From Nocardiopsis halophila DSM 44494 (GTDB lineage Bacteria > Actinomycetota > Actinomycetes > Streptosporangiales > Streptosporangiaceae): a stretch of DNA of 37,026 bases. The DNA is taken from assembly GCF_000341245.1 (NCBI RefSeq), contig NZ_ANAD01000030.1:1-37026 (forward strand), given 5' to 3'. Each line of letters begins with the position of its first letter. Position 1 is the stretch's first letter. The notes under the pieces were generated by a model. That model had not been told where the DNA came from. It worked only from the letters and a program-made list of their open reading frames with translations, and ran no database searches. A program made the translations under genes and the position numbers. Shown here one piece after another: positions 30,698 to 37,026 of the stretch.

Positions 30698-31909
30698 TCA
30701 CCCCCCGTCGGCTCCGTGCTCCTCCGCCCAGGCCGCCAGGGAGCGGCCTTCCAAGGCGGCGGCCATCATGTCGGGGAAGTCGTCGGGGGAGCAGGCGAAG
30801 GCCGGGACGTCCAAGGCGGCCAGGGCCGCGGCGGTTCCGGGCTCGTAGGCGGGCGTCCCGTCGTCGGACAGCGCGGGCAGCACCACCACCCGCACGCCGG
30901 AGGTGCGGAGGGCGGCGAGCCGCCGCAGCATCGCCTCCGGCGGGCCCCCTTCGTGGAGGTCGGAGATCAGGACCAGGACCGTCTCGGCCGGGCGCGTGAT
31001 GAGCCGCTCGCAGTAGGCCAGGGCGCGGTCGATGTCGGTGCCGCCGCCGAGGGAGGCGCCGAAGAGGGCGTCCACCGGGTCGGCGATCAGGTCGGTCAGG
31101 TCGGCCACGTCGGTGCCGAAGGCGATTAGGCGGGTGCGCAGGGTGCGCAGGGAGGCCAGGACCGACGCGAACACGCCCGCGTACACCGCGGAGGCGGCCA
31201 TCGACCCGCTCTGGTCGACGGCGAGCAGCACGTCGCCGCGCACACCCGGGCCGCTCCGCGCCCGGCCCACGATCGAGGCGGGCACCAGCACGCCCCGTTC
31301 GGGCACGTAGTGGCGCAGGTTCCTGCGGATGGTGGCGTGCCAGTCGACGTCGGCGGCGGTGCGCGGGCGGCGCGTACGGGCCGAGCGGTCCAGCGCGCCG
31401 CGCAGGCGGGACCGCGTCCGGTCGGCCAGGCGCTCTTCGAGGCCCCGGGTGACCGTGCGGACCAGGGCCCGCGCGGGCGCGCGGGCCTCCTCGGGCAGGG
31501 AGTCGGCCAGCGCCAGGACCGCCGCCGCCAGGTGGACGTCGGGGCGGACCGCCTCGGTGAGCCCGGGGTCCAGCAGCATGCGCCGCAGGCCGAGGAGGTC
31601 GAGCGCGTCGGCCTGCATGACGTGCACGGTCCGGGAGGGGAAGAGCTCGCGGACCTCGCCGAGCCAGCGGGCCACGCGCGGCGACGACTCGCCCAGTGTC
31701 GCCCCGCGCGGAGCGGCCCCGTCGGGGGCGGCGTCGGATCCGGTGTCGTAGAGGGCGCCCAGGGCGGAGTCGATCCGGGCGTCGCGCCCGGCGGGGCGTC
31801 CGCACGGGCCGTCGGCCGGGTCCCCCAGGACCAGGCGCCAACGCCGCAGCCGCTCGCTTTCCGCGGGGTCGGGGCCAGGGGTGTCGGCGTTCAAGGGCGT
31901 CGGGCTCAT
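30698..31909 (-). CDS. VWA domain protein of the MoxR-DUF5682 operon (YehP-like)
   Basis: A 403-residue protein. Residues 1-190 are mainly helical, with VHLAAAVLALADSLPEEARAPARALV. Residues about 220-395 are a von Willebrand factor A domain with a complete MIDAS: DQSGSM (about 230-235), T in GGGTDIDRALAYC (about 290), and D in VLISDLHEGG (about 315). VWA partners of MoxR ATPases act as metal-dependent adaptors that hand a target protein to the AAA+ ring. It is the last gene of the operon and overlaps the stop codon of DUF5682 by 4 bases (31906-31909), hence translational coupling. The layout matches the E. coli yehP neighbour of yehL and yehM. It is not membrane-bound. The target is unknown. 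Confidence 0.88.
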   Translation of the reverse strand: MSPTPLNADTPGPDPAESERLRRWRLVLGDPADGPCGRPAGRDARIDSALGALYDTGSDAAPDGAAPRGATLGESSPRVARWLGEVRELFPSRTVHVMQADALDLLGLRRMLLDPGLTEAVRPDVHLAAAVLALADSLPEEARAPARALVRTVTRGLEERLADRTRSRLRGALDRSARTRRPRTAADVDWHATIRRNLRHYVPERGVLVPASIVGRARSGPGVRGDVLLAVDQSGSMAASAVYAGVFASVLASLRTLRTRLIAFGTDVADLTDLIADPVDALFGASLGGGTDIDRALAYCERLITRPAETVLVLISDLHEGGPPEAMLRRLAALRTSGVRVVVLPALSDDGTPAYEPGTAAALAALDVPAFACSPDDFPDMMAAALEGRSLAAWAEEHGADGG

Positions 31910-34119
31910 CGGGACCCCTCTCCCGTCAGCAGGAGGGTGACGGTGGCCATCGCGGCGGCCGCGCGCTCCATGTCGGTTTCGGAACCGTTCGGGGCCTCAG
32001 AGACCGGCGCCTCCGCTACCCGGCGGGCGATCCCCCGGCGCTCACCGGCGGCGAAGCCGCCGAAGGTGCGGCGCAGGAGGGGCAGCACCGCGACGAACGA
32101 TGCGCCGTCCAGACCGCACAACCAGTCGTCGACGAGGTTCAGCAGTCCCTCGTCGTGGACGAGCAGCAGACCTTCGCCGCCCAGGAAGCCCGCGATCCAG
32201 GCCGCAGCGCGCTGAGGATCCGAGCCCCGCGAGACGGCACGGTCCAAGCGCCTGCGCAACCGCGCGTCGCTCAAACGGTCGGCGTCGCGCAGCAGCCGGT
32301 GCACCCGCCCCGCCACCAGGCCCGGCACCCCAGCGCGCGCGGAGAGCCGGTCGAGGGCCTCCCACCACGCCTGCTCGGAGGCGCCGCCCAGCAGCACGGC
32401 GGCCCGGTGCACGGCCTCCAGCGAAGCGCACATCCCCTCGGCTGCCTCCTCCGAGAGCCCGGACACGGCGGGACCGATCCCTGCGCACACCCGGTCCACC
32501 AGCAGGGCGGCCACCTGGCGGAGGGAGCCGCTTCCGGTGCCGCGAGCGTCCCCGTAGCGGGCGGCCCGGGCCAGCGGAGGAAGCGACTCCATGAGGACCG
32601 CCGTGTCGGAGGCGTGCGCAGCGCGCGCAGAGGCGCGGCCGAGCACCGACTCCAGGGCGTCGCCCAGGCCCGCCTTCAGGCACCGCTCCGCCAGCGACGT
32701 CAGTTCGGTCAGATCGGCGTGCCGTGCGCGCTCTCGCGTGCGCGCGTCGGCGGCCGAAGCGACGTCCTCGCCCCAGACAGATGCCTCGACCACCGCCGCC
32801 TCCATCTCCGGACGCCACGCCAGGCTCCAGCGCTCATGGAAGGAGCCCAGTACCCGCACGGGATCGGCGACGGGAACGCCCCACTCCACGTCCAGCATGC
32901 GCAACCGGTGCAGAAGGGCGCTGCGCGCGCGGGCGGTGTCCTCGCGCAGGTCGAGGTCGACCTCGCGCGGCTCGGCCCGCGGAGGCAGGCGCACCCGGCG
33001 CTGCTGCGCCTCCAGGTCGCGCTGGAGCGGCACTTTGGGGACCGACGGGGGAACGCCGCCCATCCGCTCTGCGGTCTCCATCCCCGAGCGGACGCGCTCC
33101 GCCTTGGCCGCCGCCCCTTCGCACAGGACCGACGCCACGGCCTCCGCGGCCTCCTCCAGGCCGGGCAGGGGGCGCCCCCGCAGCGACGCCAGCGCTTCGC
33201 AGAGCCGGACCCCTTCGATGACGTGAGCGGGGGAGACCTGCTCGCCCTCGGCCCGCAGCAGCCGGGCCGCCTCGGAGAGCCACCGCTCCACGGGACGGTC
33301 CGGGGCGGTGAACAGGTGGTGGTACCAGCCGGGGGCGCGCACCCCGGCGCCGTAGCCCGAGGCGGCGCCGAGGCGGCCGTGGCTCCAGGGGATCCACGTC
33401 GTCCGCACGCCCGTCCGGGGCAGGCCCCGCAGCAGGGCGGCGTCCTCGGCGGCCTTGGGGCGCTCCAGCAGCGCGGGGACGTGCCAGGCGCCGCACACGA
33501 CGGCGATCCTGGCGTGCCCGGCCCGCAGGGCCGAGCGCAGCACGCGGCGCATGTGCGCCTCCCGGCGGGCCTCGTGCCGCGGCGGCGCACCCGTGGCCGT
33601 CCGGGCCCGGACCTCGGCCATGGCCTCGGCGATGGCCGCGAACGGGGACGCCGCGGCCCCGCCGGAGCGCTCGCGCCCCCGGTGCTCGACGGCGTCGTCC
33701 CACCACCGCTCGGGGTCGTCGTAGCCGGCCGCCGCCGCGAGCCCGGCCAGTGGATCGGAGGGGTGGCCGCCCGAGGCGTCCGTGGCGAGGGAGACCGCGG
33801 CCGGCAGGTCGAAGAAGCGCACGTCGCAGCCGTTCTCATGCGCGTAGAGGAGGGCCTGCCACTCGGGGGAGAAGGAGGCGAACGGCCAGAACGCCGACCG
33901 CGCCGGGCCGCCGCGCGCGCCGGTGGCGTGCGCGAGCAGCGCCACCGGCGGTTCGAGGCCGCCGACGAACGACAGGAGCGGGTCGGCGTCGGCGGGGCCC
34001 TCGACGAGCACCGCCCCGGGCGCGAACTCCTCGAGCTCGGCCCGCACCGCGCGCGCGGAGCCCGGCCCGTGGTGCCGCACCCCCAGGACACGGACCCTGC
34101 CGGAATCGGTGGTGTTCAC
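31906..34119 (-). CDS. DUF5682 family protein (YehM-like) with TraB/Tiki-type motifs
   Basis: A 737-residue cytoplasmic protein. It opens VRVLGVRHHGPGSARAV, the DUF5682 signature, with a first GxxH (G13-V-R-H16). VLVEGPADAD (E40) follows, then AVVCGAWHVPAL with a second GxxH (G210-A-W-H213). One glutamate plus two GxxH motifs is the layout of the TraB/PrgY-Tiki-EreA/ChaN superfamily, some of which are metal-dependent hydrolases. The relation is my by-eye reading. The remaining 500 residues are mainly helical with no recognised fold. GTG 34119 is chosen for GGGAGGGAG 4 bases upstream; reading frame is open much farther upstream but that region codes for the MoxR and DUF5691 genes in other frames. 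Confidence 0.87.
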   Translation of the reverse strand: MNTTDSGRVRVLGVRHHGPGSARAVRAELEEFAPGAVLVEGPADADPLLSFVGGLEPPVALLAHATGARGGPARSAFWPFASFSPEWQALLYAHENGCDVRFFDLPAAVSLATDASGGHPSDPLAGLAAAAGYDDPERWWDDAVEHRGRERSGGAAASPFAAIAEAMAEVRARTATGAPPRHEARREAHMRRVLRSALRAGHARIAVVCGAWHVPALLERPKAAEDAALLRGLPRTGVRTTWIPWSHGRLGAASGYGAGVRAPGWYHHLFTAPDRPVERWLSEAARLLRAEGEQVSPAHVIEGVRLCEALASLRGRPLPGLEEAAEAVASVLCEGAAAKAERVRSGMETAERMGGVPPSVPKVPLQRDLEAQQRRVRLPPRAEPREVDLDLREDTARARSALLHRLRMLDVEWGVPVADPVRVLGSFHERWSLAWRPEMEAAVVEASVWGEDVASAADARTRERARHADLTELTSLAERCLKAGLGDALESVLGRASARAAHASDTAVLMESLPPLARAARYGDARGTGSGSLRQVAALLVDRVCAGIGPAVSGLSEEAAEGMCASLEAVHRAAVLLGGASEQAWWEALDRLSARAGVPGLVAGRVHRLLRDADRLSDARLRRRLDRAVSRGSDPQRAAAWIAGFLGGEGLLLVHDEGLLNLVDDWLCGLDGASFVAVLPLLRRTFGGFAAGERRGIARRVAEAPVSEAPNGSETDMERAAAAMATVTLLLTGEGSR

Positions 34120-34151
34120 GTCGCTCCCTCCCGTGCGTCCGCTGCTCCCTG

Positions 34152-35258
34152 TCAGTCGCCCACCTCCCGGCAGGCGCGGTAGAACTCGCGCCAGCCCTCG
34201 CGGTCGCGGACGACCGTCTCCAGGTACTCCCGCCACACCACCCCGTCGGCCACCGGGTCCTGCACCACCGCGCCGTGCACGCCCGCGGCCACGTCGGCCG
34301 GGCGCAGTACCCCGTCGCCGAAGTGTGCCGCCAGCGCCATCCCCTGGGTCAGCACCGAGATGGCCTCGGCGGTGCTCAGGGGCGCCCCCGGGGAGGCCAC
34401 CTCGGCCCGGCCGTCCTCGGTCGCGCCACGGCGCAGCTCCCGGAAGACCGTCACCACGCGGCGGATCTCCTGCATGCCCGAGGACACCTCCGGTAGGCCG
34501 AGCGAGCGGCCCAGCTCGTCCACCCGCCGGGCGACGATGTCCACCTCCTCCTCGGCGGTGGCCGGGGAGGGCATCACCACCGTGTTGAACCGGCGCCGCA
34601 GCGCCCCCGAGGGGGCGTTCACCCCGCGGTCCCGGTCGTTGGCGGTGGCGATCAGGTTGAAGCCGCGCCGCGCCTGCACCTCCTCGCCCAGCTCGGGGAC
34701 GGGAAGCGTCTTCTCGGACAGGATCGTGATCAGCGCGTCCTGCACCTCTGAGGGGATGCGGGTGAGCTCCTCCACGCGCGCGATCCGCCCCTCGGCCATG
34801 GCCGTCATGACCGGGCCGGGCACCAGCGCGCGCCGGGACGGGCCCTCGGAGAGCAGGCGCGCATAGTCCCACCCGTAGCGCACGGCGTCCTCGGAGGTGC
34901 CCGCCGTGCCCTGCACCAGCAGTGTGGAGTCGCCCGAGACCGCGGCGGCCAGGTGCTCGGCCAGCCACGTCTTGGCGGTTCCGGGGGCGCCGACCAGCAG
35001 GAGCGCGCGGTCGGTGGCCAGGGTCGCCACGGCGACCTCCACCACCCGCCGGTCCCCGATGTACTTGGGGGAGACCAGGGTGCCGTCGTCGAGCCCGCCC
35101 CCGAGGACATAGGTCACCACCGCCCAGGGCGACAGCCGCCAGCCGGGCGGCCGGACCCGGTCGTCCGCCCGCGCCAGCGCGGCGAGCTCGTCGGCGTGGC
35201 GCTGCTCGGCGTGCGGGCGCAGCACGTCGGCGGGCGGCCCGGCTTCGGAAGGGGTCAC
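34152..35258 (-). CDS. MoxR-family AAA+ ATPase (YehL subfamily)
   Basis: A 368-residue AAA+ protein. Walker A is GAPGTAKT at residues 90-97. The Walker B region is ARVEELTRIPSEVQDALITILSEK, the sensor-1 asparagine is in NLIATANDRDRG, and the arginine finger is in GALRRRFN, all typical of MoxR ATPases. MoxR proteins use ATP to remodel or load protein complexes, usually with a VWA partner. The neighbour set places it in the YehL subfamily defined by Snider and Houry. GTG 35258 overlaps the stop of DUF5691 by 4 bases and has GAGGAG upstream, so the two are coupled. The DUF5682 gene starts 32 bases downstream. Confidence 0.93.
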   Translation of the reverse strand: MTPSEAGPPADVLRPHAEQRHADELAALARADDRVRPPGWRLSPWAVVTYVLGGGLDDGTLVSPKYIGDRRVVEVAVATLATDRALLLVGAPGTAKTWLAEHLAAAVSGDSTLLVQGTAGTSEDAVRYGWDYARLLSEGPSRRALVPGPVMTAMAEGRIARVEELTRIPSEVQDALITILSEKTLPVPELGEEVQARRGFNLIATANDRDRGVNAPSGALRRRFNTVVMPSPATAEEEVDIVARRVDELGRSLGLPEVSSGMQEIRRVVTVFRELRRGATEDGRAEVASPGAPLSTAEAISVLTQGMALAAHFGDGVLRPADVAAGVHGAVVQDPVADGVVWREYLETVVRDREGWREFYRACREVGD

Positions 35259-36823
35259 TGGAGCTCCTCGTGGATCCGGAGGCGGAGGCGCAGGACGGCC
35301 TCCATGTCGGCCAGGGCGGCGGCGGTGCGCGGGTGGTCGCCGGGGCGGGGCCGGCGCGGGCGGGCCCCGGCCCCGGGCGGAATGCGCCGGGCCGCGACCC
35401 GGCACAGCTCGGGCAGGTACGCTTCGCCCGCCCCGTCGGCGGCGGTGTCGATCGCCCGTGCCGCGGCCGCGGCGAGCTCCTCGCTCCAGGGGCCGGGCAC
35501 GTGGTCGAGCACCGGGAGCGCGGAGGGTGCACCGGCGTCGCCGACGGCCCGCACCGCCCAGGCGCACCGCCGTTCGGCGGGCAGCAGCGCGAGCAGGGCC
35601 GGACCGCGGCTGCCGTGCACCGAGTGGCCGTGCAGCAGGCGTTCCATGACCGGGCCCGCCAGGGCGTCGGCCCACTCCCGGTCGCGCTGAACGACGGCCG
35701 CGTTGGCCAGGGCGTCGAGCAGGTCCCAGTCGCGGGCGGAGGAGGCGGCCCGGACGGCCTCCGCCCGGTCGTCGCCGAGGTGGCCGGTCCAGGTGCGCAG
35801 CGGGGCGTGGGCGACCAGGGTCCACAGCCACTCGCGCCGGAGGTCCGCGGAGGCGGGGGCGCCCGAGGACGGGCGGGGGCGCAGGCCCAGGGCGGCGCCC
35901 AGCGCGCGGTCGGCGGGGTCGGGCAGGCGCACGGACGGGCGGCCGTCCGGGCCGGGGCGGATGTGGGCGCGGACCCGGCGGGCGAGCGCGTCGCCGCGTT
36001 CGGAGCGGGGCAGCCGCGCCAGCAGGGCCGAGGCGAGCGCGCGCACGCCGGGCGAGGGGTCGCGCAGCGCCTTGGCCAGGAAGTCCTCGTCGGCGGGGGA
36101 CAGGTGTTCCTCCAGGGAGGTGAGGAGGCGGCGCCTCCCCGCGTCGTCCTCGTGCGCCCAGCGCTCCGGGGAGGTGTCCGGGCGCCCGTCGGACGGGTGG
36201 AGGCCGGCAAGCCAGGACCAGTCGGCCGACAGGGAGGCGAGCCACCGGCCGCGATCGCCGGAGGCCGCGGCGATCGCGGTCCGGAGCGCGCGGTGGCGAG
36301 AGCCCGCCTCCAGGAGGCCGGGCAGAAGGGAGGGCGGGACCAGCGCACCGCGCGCGCGGGCGAGGTCCAGCCATTCGGCGATCAGCTCGGTGTCGTCGCG
36401 CTCCAGGAAGTCGTCCAGGACCTCGCCCGCCGCCCGAGGGGCCCAGGGGGCCGACTCGGCGGGCGCCGGCGGCAGCGGTTCGGTGTCCGGGGCGCGGAGG
36501 GGGCGCACCCCGGCGCGGTCGCGGACGACCGCGAGGGCGGCCCGGTCGAGCAGGTCGAGCGCCGGGTGCCCGGCAGTGCCCTCACCGCCCGGTACTCCGG
36601 CGCGCGAGGTCCCGACGAGCGCCGCGGCGACGAGGGCGTCCCAGGGCACCGAGGGGACCGAAGGTGCCGGCGGCTCCGGAGGAGAGGAGGGAGGAGGGGA
36701 GGGGGCCAACGGATGCCTTTCGAGGGTGGGGGTGGTCCACTCCGGGGTGCACGGCCCCGGGGACCGCGCACGCGGCTCGGCGGGGACAGGTGACCGGTCG
36801 CGGGCGGCGCGAGGGAAGACCAC
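35255..36823 (-). CDS. DUF5691 family protein
   Basis: A protein of up to 522 residues. The recognisable DUF5691 part begins near residue 60 with VPWDALVAAALVGTSRAG and continues with ALDLLDRAALAVVRDRAG. Further on, FLAKALRDPSPGVRALASALLARLP and EWLWTLVAHAPL suggest an alpha-solenoid-like repeat protein; this is a by-eye impression. There is no signal peptide or membrane segment. The start is uncertain. GTG 36823 gives a 58-residue Pro-rich N-terminus; TTG 36709, with GAAAGG 6 bases upstream, removes 38 of these. Position between the SWIM and MoxR genes, with a 4-base overlap to the latter, matches the conserved operon. Its role is unknown; probably a scaffold. Confidence 0.82.
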   Translation of the reverse strand: MVFPRAARDRSPVPAEPRARSPGPCTPEWTTPTLERHPLAPSPPPSSPPEPPAPSVPSVPWDALVAAALVGTSRAGVPGGEGTAGHPALDLLDRAALAVVRDRAGVRPLRAPDTEPLPPAPAESAPWAPRAAGEVLDDFLERDDTELIAEWLDLARARGALVPPSLLPGLLEAGSRHRALRTAIAAASGDRGRWLASLSADWSWLAGLHPSDGRPDTSPERWAHEDDAGRRRLLTSLEEHLSPADEDFLAKALRDPSPGVRALASALLARLPRSERGDALARRVRAHIRPGPDGRPSVRLPDPADRALGAALGLRPRPSSGAPASADLRREWLWTLVAHAPLRTWTGHLGDDRAEAVRAASSARDWDLLDALANAAVVQRDREWADALAGPVMERLLHGHSVHGSRGPALLALLPAERRCAWAVRAVGDAGAPSALPVLDHVPGPWSEELAAAAARAIDTAADGAGEAYLPELCRVAARRIPPGAGARPRRPRPGDHPRTAAALADMEAVLRLRLRIHEELQ

Positions 36824-36843
36824 GCCGCCCGCGACCGGGCGGA

Positions 36844-36874
36844 CTCCCCGGGACGGCCGCGCCGTCCCGGGGAG
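36844..36874 (-). terminator. Strong hairpin between SWIM-protein and DUF5691 genes
   Basis: CTCCCCGGGACGGC (36844-36857), loop CGC, GCCGTCCCGGGGAG (36861-36874): a perfect 14-base stem starting 3 bases after the stop codon. It has no T-run. It may end most upstream transcripts, stabilise them, or reduce read-through into the rest of the operon. Confidence 0.6.
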
Positions 36875-36877
36875 GGC

Positions 36878-37026
36878 TCATAACAGGACCGGCGGGTCCG
36901 CGGGGTTCGGCGGCCAGACGGTCAGGGGGTGCAGCCCGTCGGGCGTCCACTCCGCGGCGGCGGTGACGGGGGCGCCGCCGCCGGCCGCGAGCAGCCGCCA
37001 TGGCGGCGAGGCGGGCGCCGCCACCC
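36878..37026 (-). CDS. C-terminal end of probable SWIM zinc-finger protein (YehQ-like), cut by window edge
   Basis: Only the last 48 codons are present; the frame is open to the edge and ends at TGA 36880-36878. They read PPWRLLAAGGGAPVTAAAEWTPDGLHPLTVW near the end of the protein, a tail that I recognise as like the C-terminus of SWIM zinc-finger proteins found at this position in actinobacterial operons. The zinc finger itself would lie outside the window. In the related E. coli set the SWIM protein is YehQ. Assignment depends on context and memory. Confidence 0.5.
   Translation of the reverse strand, partial: VAAPASPPWRLLAAGGGAPVTAAAEWTPDGLHPLTVWPPNPADPPVLL

What the first reader, a model, noticed from the sequence alone, without database searches (positions are those of the whole stretch)
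30698..37026. Intact MoxR-VWA-DUF5682-DUF5691-SWIM operon of unknown function
Five co-directional minus-strand genes: SWIM-type tail, DUF5691, MoxR AAA+, DUF5682 and VWA. Three junctions involve 4-base overlaps or 32-base gaps. The set matches E. coli yehL-yehM-yehP-yehQ, to which actinomycetes add DUF5691. Established: MoxR ATPases of the YehL subfamily pair with VWA proteins. Unknown: the substrate and any signal. The whole could be a chaperone-like machine that activates or dismantles a target in an ATP-dependent way, perhaps a stress or conflict system.
Basis: partly seen in the sequence, partly recalled or inferred. Interest (0 to 1): 0.75.

Follow-up and report, generated by a model that had tools for sequence, protein, structure and literature searches.

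The report
ATP-driven machine with TraB-like hydrolase
Five neighbouring genes, always found together in many unrelated bacteria and partly shared with nearly every E. coli, encode an unstudied ATP-powered protein machine whose 'unknown' core protein looks like a TraB/TIKI-family hydrolase (probably a protease), which gives this machine its first testable chemistry.

Summary
On the minus strand lie VWA (30698-31909), DUF5682 (31906-34119), a MoxR-type AAA+ ATPase (34152-35258), DUF5691 (35255-36709) and the tail of a SWIM zinc-finger gene, which continues beyond the window to about contig base 38202. The junctions are as described. The set is a real unit: 71 of 80 DUF5682 loci carry all five families, and at least 8 of the other 9 have missing genes that could lie beyond a contig end. 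SWIM and DUF5691 are one gene in 14 loci. In 396 actinomycete genomes, all 21 with DUF5691 also have DUF5682 (P about 5e-32).

The new result is that DUF5682's N-terminal domain is a TraB/PrgY (TIKI/Ere/ChaN superfamily) hydrolase domain. Profile comparison gives E = 8e-7 over 196 columns (nulls 0.007 or worse), a confident fold model matches HopBA1 and EreC, and the catalytic His, Glu, Arg and His are invariant in 95 of 95 sequences. DUF5691 is a HEAT/ARM-like solenoid.

Most likely, MoxR and VWA form an ATP-driven remodeller that activates or feeds this hydrolase, with SWIM-DUF5691 selecting the target. Substrate and signal remain unknown. A defence role is not supported: yehM is in 97% of E. 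coli and no viral contig carries DUF5682.

The parts
30698..31909 (-). VWA (CoxE-type) protein, 403 aa, with complete MIDAS motif D232-x-S234-x-S236, T291, D317
   Evidence: PF05762 E 3.3e-50; MIDAS residues conserved in all but at most one or two of the aligned relatives
31906..34119 (-). DUF5682 protein, 737 aa (homologue of E. coli YehM): N-terminal TraB/TIKI-type hydrolase domain plus C-terminal HEAT-like helical solenoid
   Evidence: PF18934 E 4e-240; AF2 pLDDT 89.6; fold matches; TraB profile match E 5.7e-5 to 8.3e-7
33388..34116 (-). TraB/TIKI-like hydrolase domain of DUF5682 (residues 2-244) with H16/H17, E40, R186, H213
   Evidence: R15, H16, E40, R186, E187, G210, H213 invariant in 95 of 95 sequences; aligned to GxxH..E..R[ND]xxM..GxxH of TraB/PrgY/GumN
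32005..32814 (-). C-terminal alpha-solenoid of DUF5682 (residues 436-705)
   Evidence: AF2 secondary structure and matches to HEAT-type repeat proteins
34152..35258 (-). MoxR-type AAA+ ATPase, 368 aa (homologue of E. coli YehL); Walker A GAPGTAKT, Walker B RVEE, sensor-1 N207, R222/R223
   Evidence: PF07728 E 3.4e-38; motifs invariant in 91-92 of 92 relatives
35255..36709 (-). DUF5691 protein, about 484 aa (TTG start inferred), HEAT/ARM-like helical repeat protein
   Evidence: PF18944 E 1.4e-85; AF2 model of a fused homologue pLDDT 92.6, solenoid matches
36878..37026 (-). 3' end of the SWIM zinc-finger gene; the rest is at C30:37028-38202 outside the window (one N at 37027)
36794..36874 (-). 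Two tandem perfect RNA hairpins (36844-36874 and 36794-36838) just after the SWIM stop codon; probable terminator, also present in N. endophytica with compensatory changes in the first stem
   Evidence: z -8.63, -77.8 kcal/mol; N. endophytica L066; no Rfam match; no full second copy in the genome

Best explanation
The five genes encode one machine. Shown by sequence: a MoxR AAA+ ATPase and a MIDAS-competent VWA protein, next to DUF5682; DUF5682 is a TraB/PrgY-type (TIKI/Ere/ChaN superfamily) hydrolase domain with an intact His/Glu/Arg/His site, followed by a helical solenoid; SWIM and DUF5691 form a second pair (fused in 14 loci) consisting of a zinc finger plus a HEAT/ARM-like solenoid. Inferred: MoxR forms the usual hexamer, the VWA protein docks on it and grips its client through the MIDAS metal, and ATP hydrolysis twists or opens the client, as shown for NorQ/NorD. 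In characterised MoxR/VWA systems the client is often encoded beside the pair; here the best client or effector is DUF5682, so ATP would switch on, load or feed a peptide- or ester-cleaving enzyme. SWIM-DUF5691 would recognise the target (protein or nucleic acid). The likely role is housekeeping quality control or a stress response rather than phage defence.
For: Gene set conserved across many phyla; 71 of 80 loci hold all five families; SWIM-DUF5691 fused in 14 loci; all 21 actinomycete genomes with a solid DUF5691 hit also have DUF5682, on the same contig, P about 5e-32; MoxR and DUF5682 distances correlate r 0.92. DUF5682 vs TraB/PrgY profile E 8.3e-7, 196 columns; best null 0.007 of 60 column permutations and 0.016 of 30 unrelated families; full colinear alignment of the four motifs; structural matches HopBA1 Z 9.1 and EreC Z 6.9 in residues 1-266; catalytic residues invariant 95/95 and equivalent in pattern to H50/E78/R261/H289 of EreC (PMC7979712) and to the 2His/2Glu plus Arg site of TIKI-family endopeptidases (PMC6254334). 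MoxR/VWA mechanism: NorQD twisting model (PMC13036017); MIDAS needed for the client but not for NorQ binding (PMC9976466).
Against: No activity or interaction has been measured for any member. The first Glu of the Ere/RRSP site is not obvious in DUF5682 (G-V-R-H-H instead), as in TIKI-type GxxH motifs. Similarity to the erythromycin esterase profile itself was not significant, and the match to the GumN-only subset was weak (E 0.006). Whole-model Foldseek had no significant hit because the helical part dominates. The order of action (who acts on whom) is inferred from other MoxR/VWA systems. The MoxR Walker B has Glu instead of Asp in all members, so ATPase activity is likely but unproven.
Confidence: 0.5

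Rival explanations
1. Maturase: MoxR and VWA insert a metal into, or fold, DUF5682 (as NorQD does for nitric oxide reductase and CoxD/CoxE for CO dehydrogenase), and the machine's output is a matured DUF5682 enzyme that acts alone afterwards.
For: The VWA protein is of the CoxE family; the closest studied MoxR/VWA pairs insert metals or remodel an operon-encoded client; Tiki itself is described as metal-dependent.
Against: EreC and RRSP, on the same fold, are metal-independent; no metal-transport or cofactor gene travels with the set across families; it does not explain SWIM-DUF5691.
Confidence: 0.2
2. Conflict or anti-phage system of the MoxR-vWA ternary type, with DUF5682 as toxic effector.
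For: MoxR-vWA ternary conflict systems exist and favour multicellular bacteria (PMC7159879); weak bpMoxR similarity; some copies sit on plasmids, one next to a type I restriction system; in actinomycetes the set is found in only 24 of 396 species, mostly large genomes.
Against: E. coli yehM is in 5284 of 5426 complete genomes, almost all chromosomal; no DUF5682 in 2.9 million viral contigs at the pattern sensitivity used; Streptomyces copies sit at a fixed place beside sucCD; nearest flanking genes match PADLOC only through a handful of generic families such as kinases; core proteins have no PADLOC hit except AAA-generic ones; bpMoxR is below Pfam's cut-off.
Confidence: 0.13
3. DUF5682 is a catalytically inactive scaffold of TraB fold; the machine is a pure remodelling chaperone like RavA-ViaA acting on an unlinked target.
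For: PMT keeps this fold without the catalytic motif (PMC6254334); RavA-ViaA act on enzymes encoded elsewhere (PMC7159879).
Against: H16, E40, R186 and H213 are invariant in 95 of 95 DUF5682 sequences, including E. coli at 28% identity, and the motifs persist in the paralogue at C49, which is not expected of a dead fold.
Confidence: 0.12

Closest known systems
E. coli yehL-yehM-yehP-yehQ
   Same: MoxR, DUF5682, VWA and SWIM genes in one run with overlaps; DUF5682 28% identical, same catalytic residues and same R-x-E-E Walker B
   Different: SWIM gene is downstream and matches only at the zinc finger; no DUF5691; DUF4132 gene yehI lies upstream. Itself uncharacterised: no paper found in the library describes its function
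NorQ/NorD, CbbQ/CbbO, CoxD/CoxE
   Same: MoxR ATPase plus VWA protein (the window's VWA is of the CoxE family), with the likely client in the same operon
   Different: Their clients are enzymes of respiration or carbon fixation; none is known with a TraB/TIKI-type protein or a SWIM/HEAT pair
RavA-ViaA
   Same: MoxR plus VWA, chaperone-like
   Different: Two components only, targets encoded elsewhere
MoxR-vWA ternary conflict systems (VMAP, beta-propeller; PMC7159879)
   Same: Three-component logic of MoxR, vWA and a third protein
   Different: Third component is unrelated; the paper mentions neither SWIM, YehL, YehM, YehP nor DUF56xx; bpMoxR is below cut-off and no VMAP hit appears
TraB/PrgY/GumN, TIKI, erythromycin esterase (EreC), ChaN, HopBA1 fold group
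   Same: N-terminal domain fold and His/Glu/Arg/His motif pattern
   Different: None is known (to me) in an operon with AAA+ and VWA genes; DUF5682 has an added C-terminal solenoid

Membership tests
MoxR AAA+ ATPase (YehL subfamily) | AAA_5-type domain with Walker A, Walker B, sensor 1 and arginine finger | tested here: met
   PF07728 E 3e-38; GxPGTAK[TS] 92/92, E-E 92/92 (Glu replaces the Walker B Asp), N207 92/92, R223 92/92
MoxR AAA+ ATPase (YehL subfamily) | Helix-2 insert that defines the MoxR clade | not tested
   No structure was predicted for the ATPase
MoxR/VWA pair | Adjacent VWA co-chaperone with MIDAS motif DxSxS-T-D | tested here: met
   PF05762 E 3e-50; MIDAS residues present in 90-91 of 92 aligned sequences
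TraB/PrgY/GumN (TIKI superfamily) hydrolase | Sequence homology over the whole domain | tested here: met
   hhalign E 5.7e-5 with the TraB/GumN set, 8.3e-7 with the 5 TraB-type ones, nulls 0.007 or worse; a single-sequence Pfam scan finds only DUF5682
TraB/PrgY/GumN (TIKI superfamily) hydrolase | EreA/ChaN-like fold | tested here: met
   AF2 pLDDT 89.6; residues 1-266 align to 5t09 (Z 9.1, 143 residues, 3.2 A) and 6xcq (Z 6.9); Z values of this size are suggestive, not decisive by themselves
TraB/PrgY/GumN (TIKI superfamily) hydrolase | Catalytic His-Glu pair, Arg and second His | tested here: met
   Invariant in 95 of 95 sequences; order and spacing match EreC H50/E78/R261/H289
TraB/PrgY/GumN (TIKI superfamily) hydrolase | Hydrolytic activity | not testable with these tools
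   Needs purified protein
SWIM zinc finger protein | CxCxnCxH finger | tested here: met
   CGCPVRRRLCPH in the window's gene; CxC..CxH in 78 of 86 relatives; Pfam score above cut-off in relatives L047 and L050, below it in this genome
MoxR-vWA ternary conflict system (Kaur 2020) | bpMoxR or VMAP component | tested here: not met
   bpMoxR 23.5 bits vs cut-off 27; no VMAP hit
Known anti-phage defence system | Match to a PADLOC model and location among defence genes | tested here: not met
   Only AAA-generic hits at E above 0.002; flanking genes give generic kinases and few others

The most novel reading that the evidence does not exclude
A new class of ATP-controlled hydrolase: a MoxR/VWA ring that activates or feeds a TraB/TIKI-family protease (DUF5682), aimed by a SWIM-HEAT adaptor, widespread in bacteria and present, unrecognised, in the core genome of E. 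coli.
Probability: 0.3. Interest if true: 0.82.

Novelty: new variant of a known kind. Interest (0 to 1): 0.62.

Why it matters
MoxR/VWA machines are known to mature or remodel enzymes, but I know of no member that works with a TraB/TIKI-type hydrolase. TraB/TIKI enzymes are peptidases or esterases whose regulation is poorly known. Linking the two turns a 'function unknown' operon, conserved from actinomycetes to cyanobacteria and present in 97% of E. coli genomes as yehL-M-P, into a machine with named catalytic residues and a tractable laboratory host for testing it.

Tried and rejected
Defence island: PADLOC scans of the core and of 86 flanking proteins, viral contigs and phage records gave no support; the single 'phage' hit MT835988 looks like a bacterial chromosome piece with rarA next door. 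Contig end as the reason for the missing SWIM part: rejected, the contig runs to 46086. A true frameshift in the SWIM gene: not needed, there is a single N at 37027. Erythromycin-esterase profile as the closest relative of DUF5682: not significant; the TraB type is. Whole-model Foldseek for DUF5682: nothing significant, helical repeats dominate. Homology of YehQ (beyond the finger), of YehI and of the type-B 468-aa protein to SWIM-DUF5691: not seen with single-sequence profile comparisons, so left open. TraB homologues in close relatives: none, so proteobacterial ones were used. PDB sequence search with the DUF5682 profile: no hit. Flanking genes other than the five are conserved only within families, so no extra component was added. 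Literature: nothing found on DUF5682, DUF5691 or this operon's function in the library.
Full report
What is in the window. The window is the first 37026 bases of a 46086-base contig (C30) of a 6.3 Mb actinomycete genome; its DUF5682 is 79% identical to that of Nocardiopsis endophytica and 55-57% to other Nocardiopsis, so the genus is inferred to be Nocardiopsis. Four complete minus-strand genes are confirmed by Pfam: VWA_CoxE, DUF5682, a MoxR-like AAA_5 ATPase and DUF5691. Junctions are ATGA (4-base overlap), a 32-base gap and GTGA (4-base overlap). The SWIM gene's last 48 codons are in the window; the rest continues to about C30:38202. Its frame breaks at one N at C30:37027, at the window edge, so this is an assembly ambiguity and not evidence of a broken gene. 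It carries a CxCx6CxH finger.

Is it more than chance. Of these, 71 hold all five families, and at least 8 of the other 9 have missing genes that could lie beyond a contig end (the Nostocaceae MAG L118 shows no VWA gene in the 9 kb downstream). Three layouts occur: one colinear run; [SWIM-DUF5691] divergent from [MoxR-DUF5682-VWA] in Streptomyces and a few relatives; and SWIM fused to DUF5691 in one protein, in 14 loci (13 of the scan plus Hymenobacter). In a fixed draw of 396 genomes of the phylum, DUF5682 is in 24 and DUF5691 (solid hits) in 21, all 21 among the 24 and close by on the same contig; hypergeometric P about 5e-32, not corrected for phylogeny. Pairwise distances of the five proteins correlate (r 0.75-0.92; highest MoxR with DUF5682); this also reflects shared species history. 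Annotated records show the same set in Deinococcus, Hymenobacter, Rhizobium and Methylosinus plasmids, and the scan in cyanobacteria, Chloroflexota, a planctomycete and Thiofilum. DUF5691 is therefore not an actinomycete addition. In E. coli and on an Iodobacter plasmid the order is DUF4132-MoxR-DUF5682-VWA-SWIM.

What the parts are. MoxR: Walker A, sensor 1 and arginine finger are intact in all 92 aligned sequences, but the Walker B aspartate is glutamate (R-x-E-E) in all 92, E. coli YehL included. VWA: the MIDAS residues are complete. DUF5691: the AF2 model of a fused SWIM-DUF5691 protein (Phytohabitans, L078) has pLDDT 92.6, and its DUF5691 half matches HEAT/ARM solenoids; Z values of 8-10 for helical repeats show a type of fold, not a relative.

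DUF5682 is the key. The AF2 model has pLDDT 89.6. Residues 436-705 are a helical solenoid. Residues 1-266 align to HopBA1 (5t09, Z 9.1, 143 residues, 3.2 A), to a Tetrahymena complex IV subunit (7w5z_E, Z 10.1) and to the erythromycin esterase EreC (6xcq, Z 6.9). The published EreC and RRSP papers place ChaN, HopBA1, PMT, Ere and TIKI proteins in one fold group. Independently, a profile of the DUF5682 N-domain aligns over 200 columns with TraB/PrgY/GumN proteins at E 5.7e-5, and with the TraB-type subset at 8.3e-7; the best of 60 column permutations is 0.007 and the best of 30 unrelated families 0.016. The alignment pairs GVRHH with GxxH, VLVEGP with the acidic motif, REAHM with R[DN]xxM and CGAWH with the second GxxH. 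R15, H16, E40, E86, D104, R186, E187, G210 and H213 are invariant in 95 of 95 sequences including E. coli YehM. In EreC the corresponding H50, E78, R261 and H289 line the catalytic site. The direct comparison with the Ere profile was not significant, which fits a closer tie to TraB.

How it most likely works. Shown: the domains, motifs and linkage. Known from other systems: MoxR hexamers act with a VWA partner; in NorQD a finger of the VWA domain enters the ring, the MIDAS is needed for the client but not for NorQ, and ATP turnover twists a linker to remodel the client. In several such systems the client is encoded beside the pair. Inferred: DUF5682 is the client or effector, so ATP would gate a TraB/TIKI-type hydrolase, with SWIM-DUF5691 as the recognition arm. 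Whether the machine activates DUF5682, loads it with metal, or feeds it unfolded substrate is open. I give 0.5 to the general statement.

Conflict or housekeeping. yehM is in 5284 of 5426 E. coli genomes, nearly always chromosomal. No DUF5682 was confirmed in 2.9 million viral contigs. In Streptomyces the set lies beside sucCD and a B12-binding gene in most sampled loci. The nearest flanking genes match PADLOC through generic kinases and few others. A conflict role is not excluded, since some copies are on plasmids and one adjoins a type I restriction system, but it is not favoured.

Limits. No biochemistry is known for any member. Only 80 of at least 589 loci were read, and these are the closest ones. 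Gene starts are inferred. The terminator reading of the two hairpins and the idea that DUF4132 fills the DUF5691 slot rest on few cases. The claim that DUF5682 is TraB-like rests; the Pfam copy used here still lists it as of unknown function.

Noticed in passing
window 36794-36874 and L066 (N. endophytica) just after the SWIM stop: Two tandem perfect hairpins (14 and 19 bp stems) between SWIM and DUF5691, conserved in N. endophytica with compensatory changes in the first stem and an identical loop in the second; a different long hairpin stands there in L045. Probably terminators, so SWIM may be a separate transcript in Nocardiopsis.
   Followed up: partly
L044 (own genome C49:30-2915), L048, L049, L052, L053, L055: A second, divergent cluster in the same genomes: small protein with a PCKH motif, 468-aa helical protein, VWA, MoxR, 950-aa DUF5682 paralogue; catalytic motifs kept.
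   Followed up: partly
L051:8518-12510 and L063:8941-12708: DUF5682 and VWA fused in one protein (shown for L051, 1330 aa; likely in the Streptomyces atratus plasmid, 1255 aa), with DUF4132 or very large proteins nearby: a third variant of the system.
   Followed up: partly
MoxR, window 34152-35258, residues 161-164: Walker B reads R-x-E-E: glutamate replaces the usual aspartate in all 92 relatives, E. coli YehL included.
   Followed up: yes
L056 (E. coli K-12) and L065 (Iodobacter plasmid): DUF4132 (YehI family) sits upstream of MoxR where DUF5691 sits elsewhere; it may be the functional counterpart, but no sequence similarity was found.
   Followed up: partly
L057, E. coli plasmid NZ_CP103756: IS26-flanked chromosomal block yehI-yehLMPQ-btsSR-mlrA carried on a CTX-M-15 conjugative plasmid.
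   Followed up: no
MT835988 (L058): Record labelled bacteriophage looks like a bacterial chromosome piece (MoxR-DUF5682-VWA, then rarA), so probably misclassified.
   Followed up: yes
L097, L105, L115 and other Streptomyces loci: The set lies at a fixed chromosomal place beside sucC/sucD and a standalone cobalamin-binding protein.
   Followed up: no
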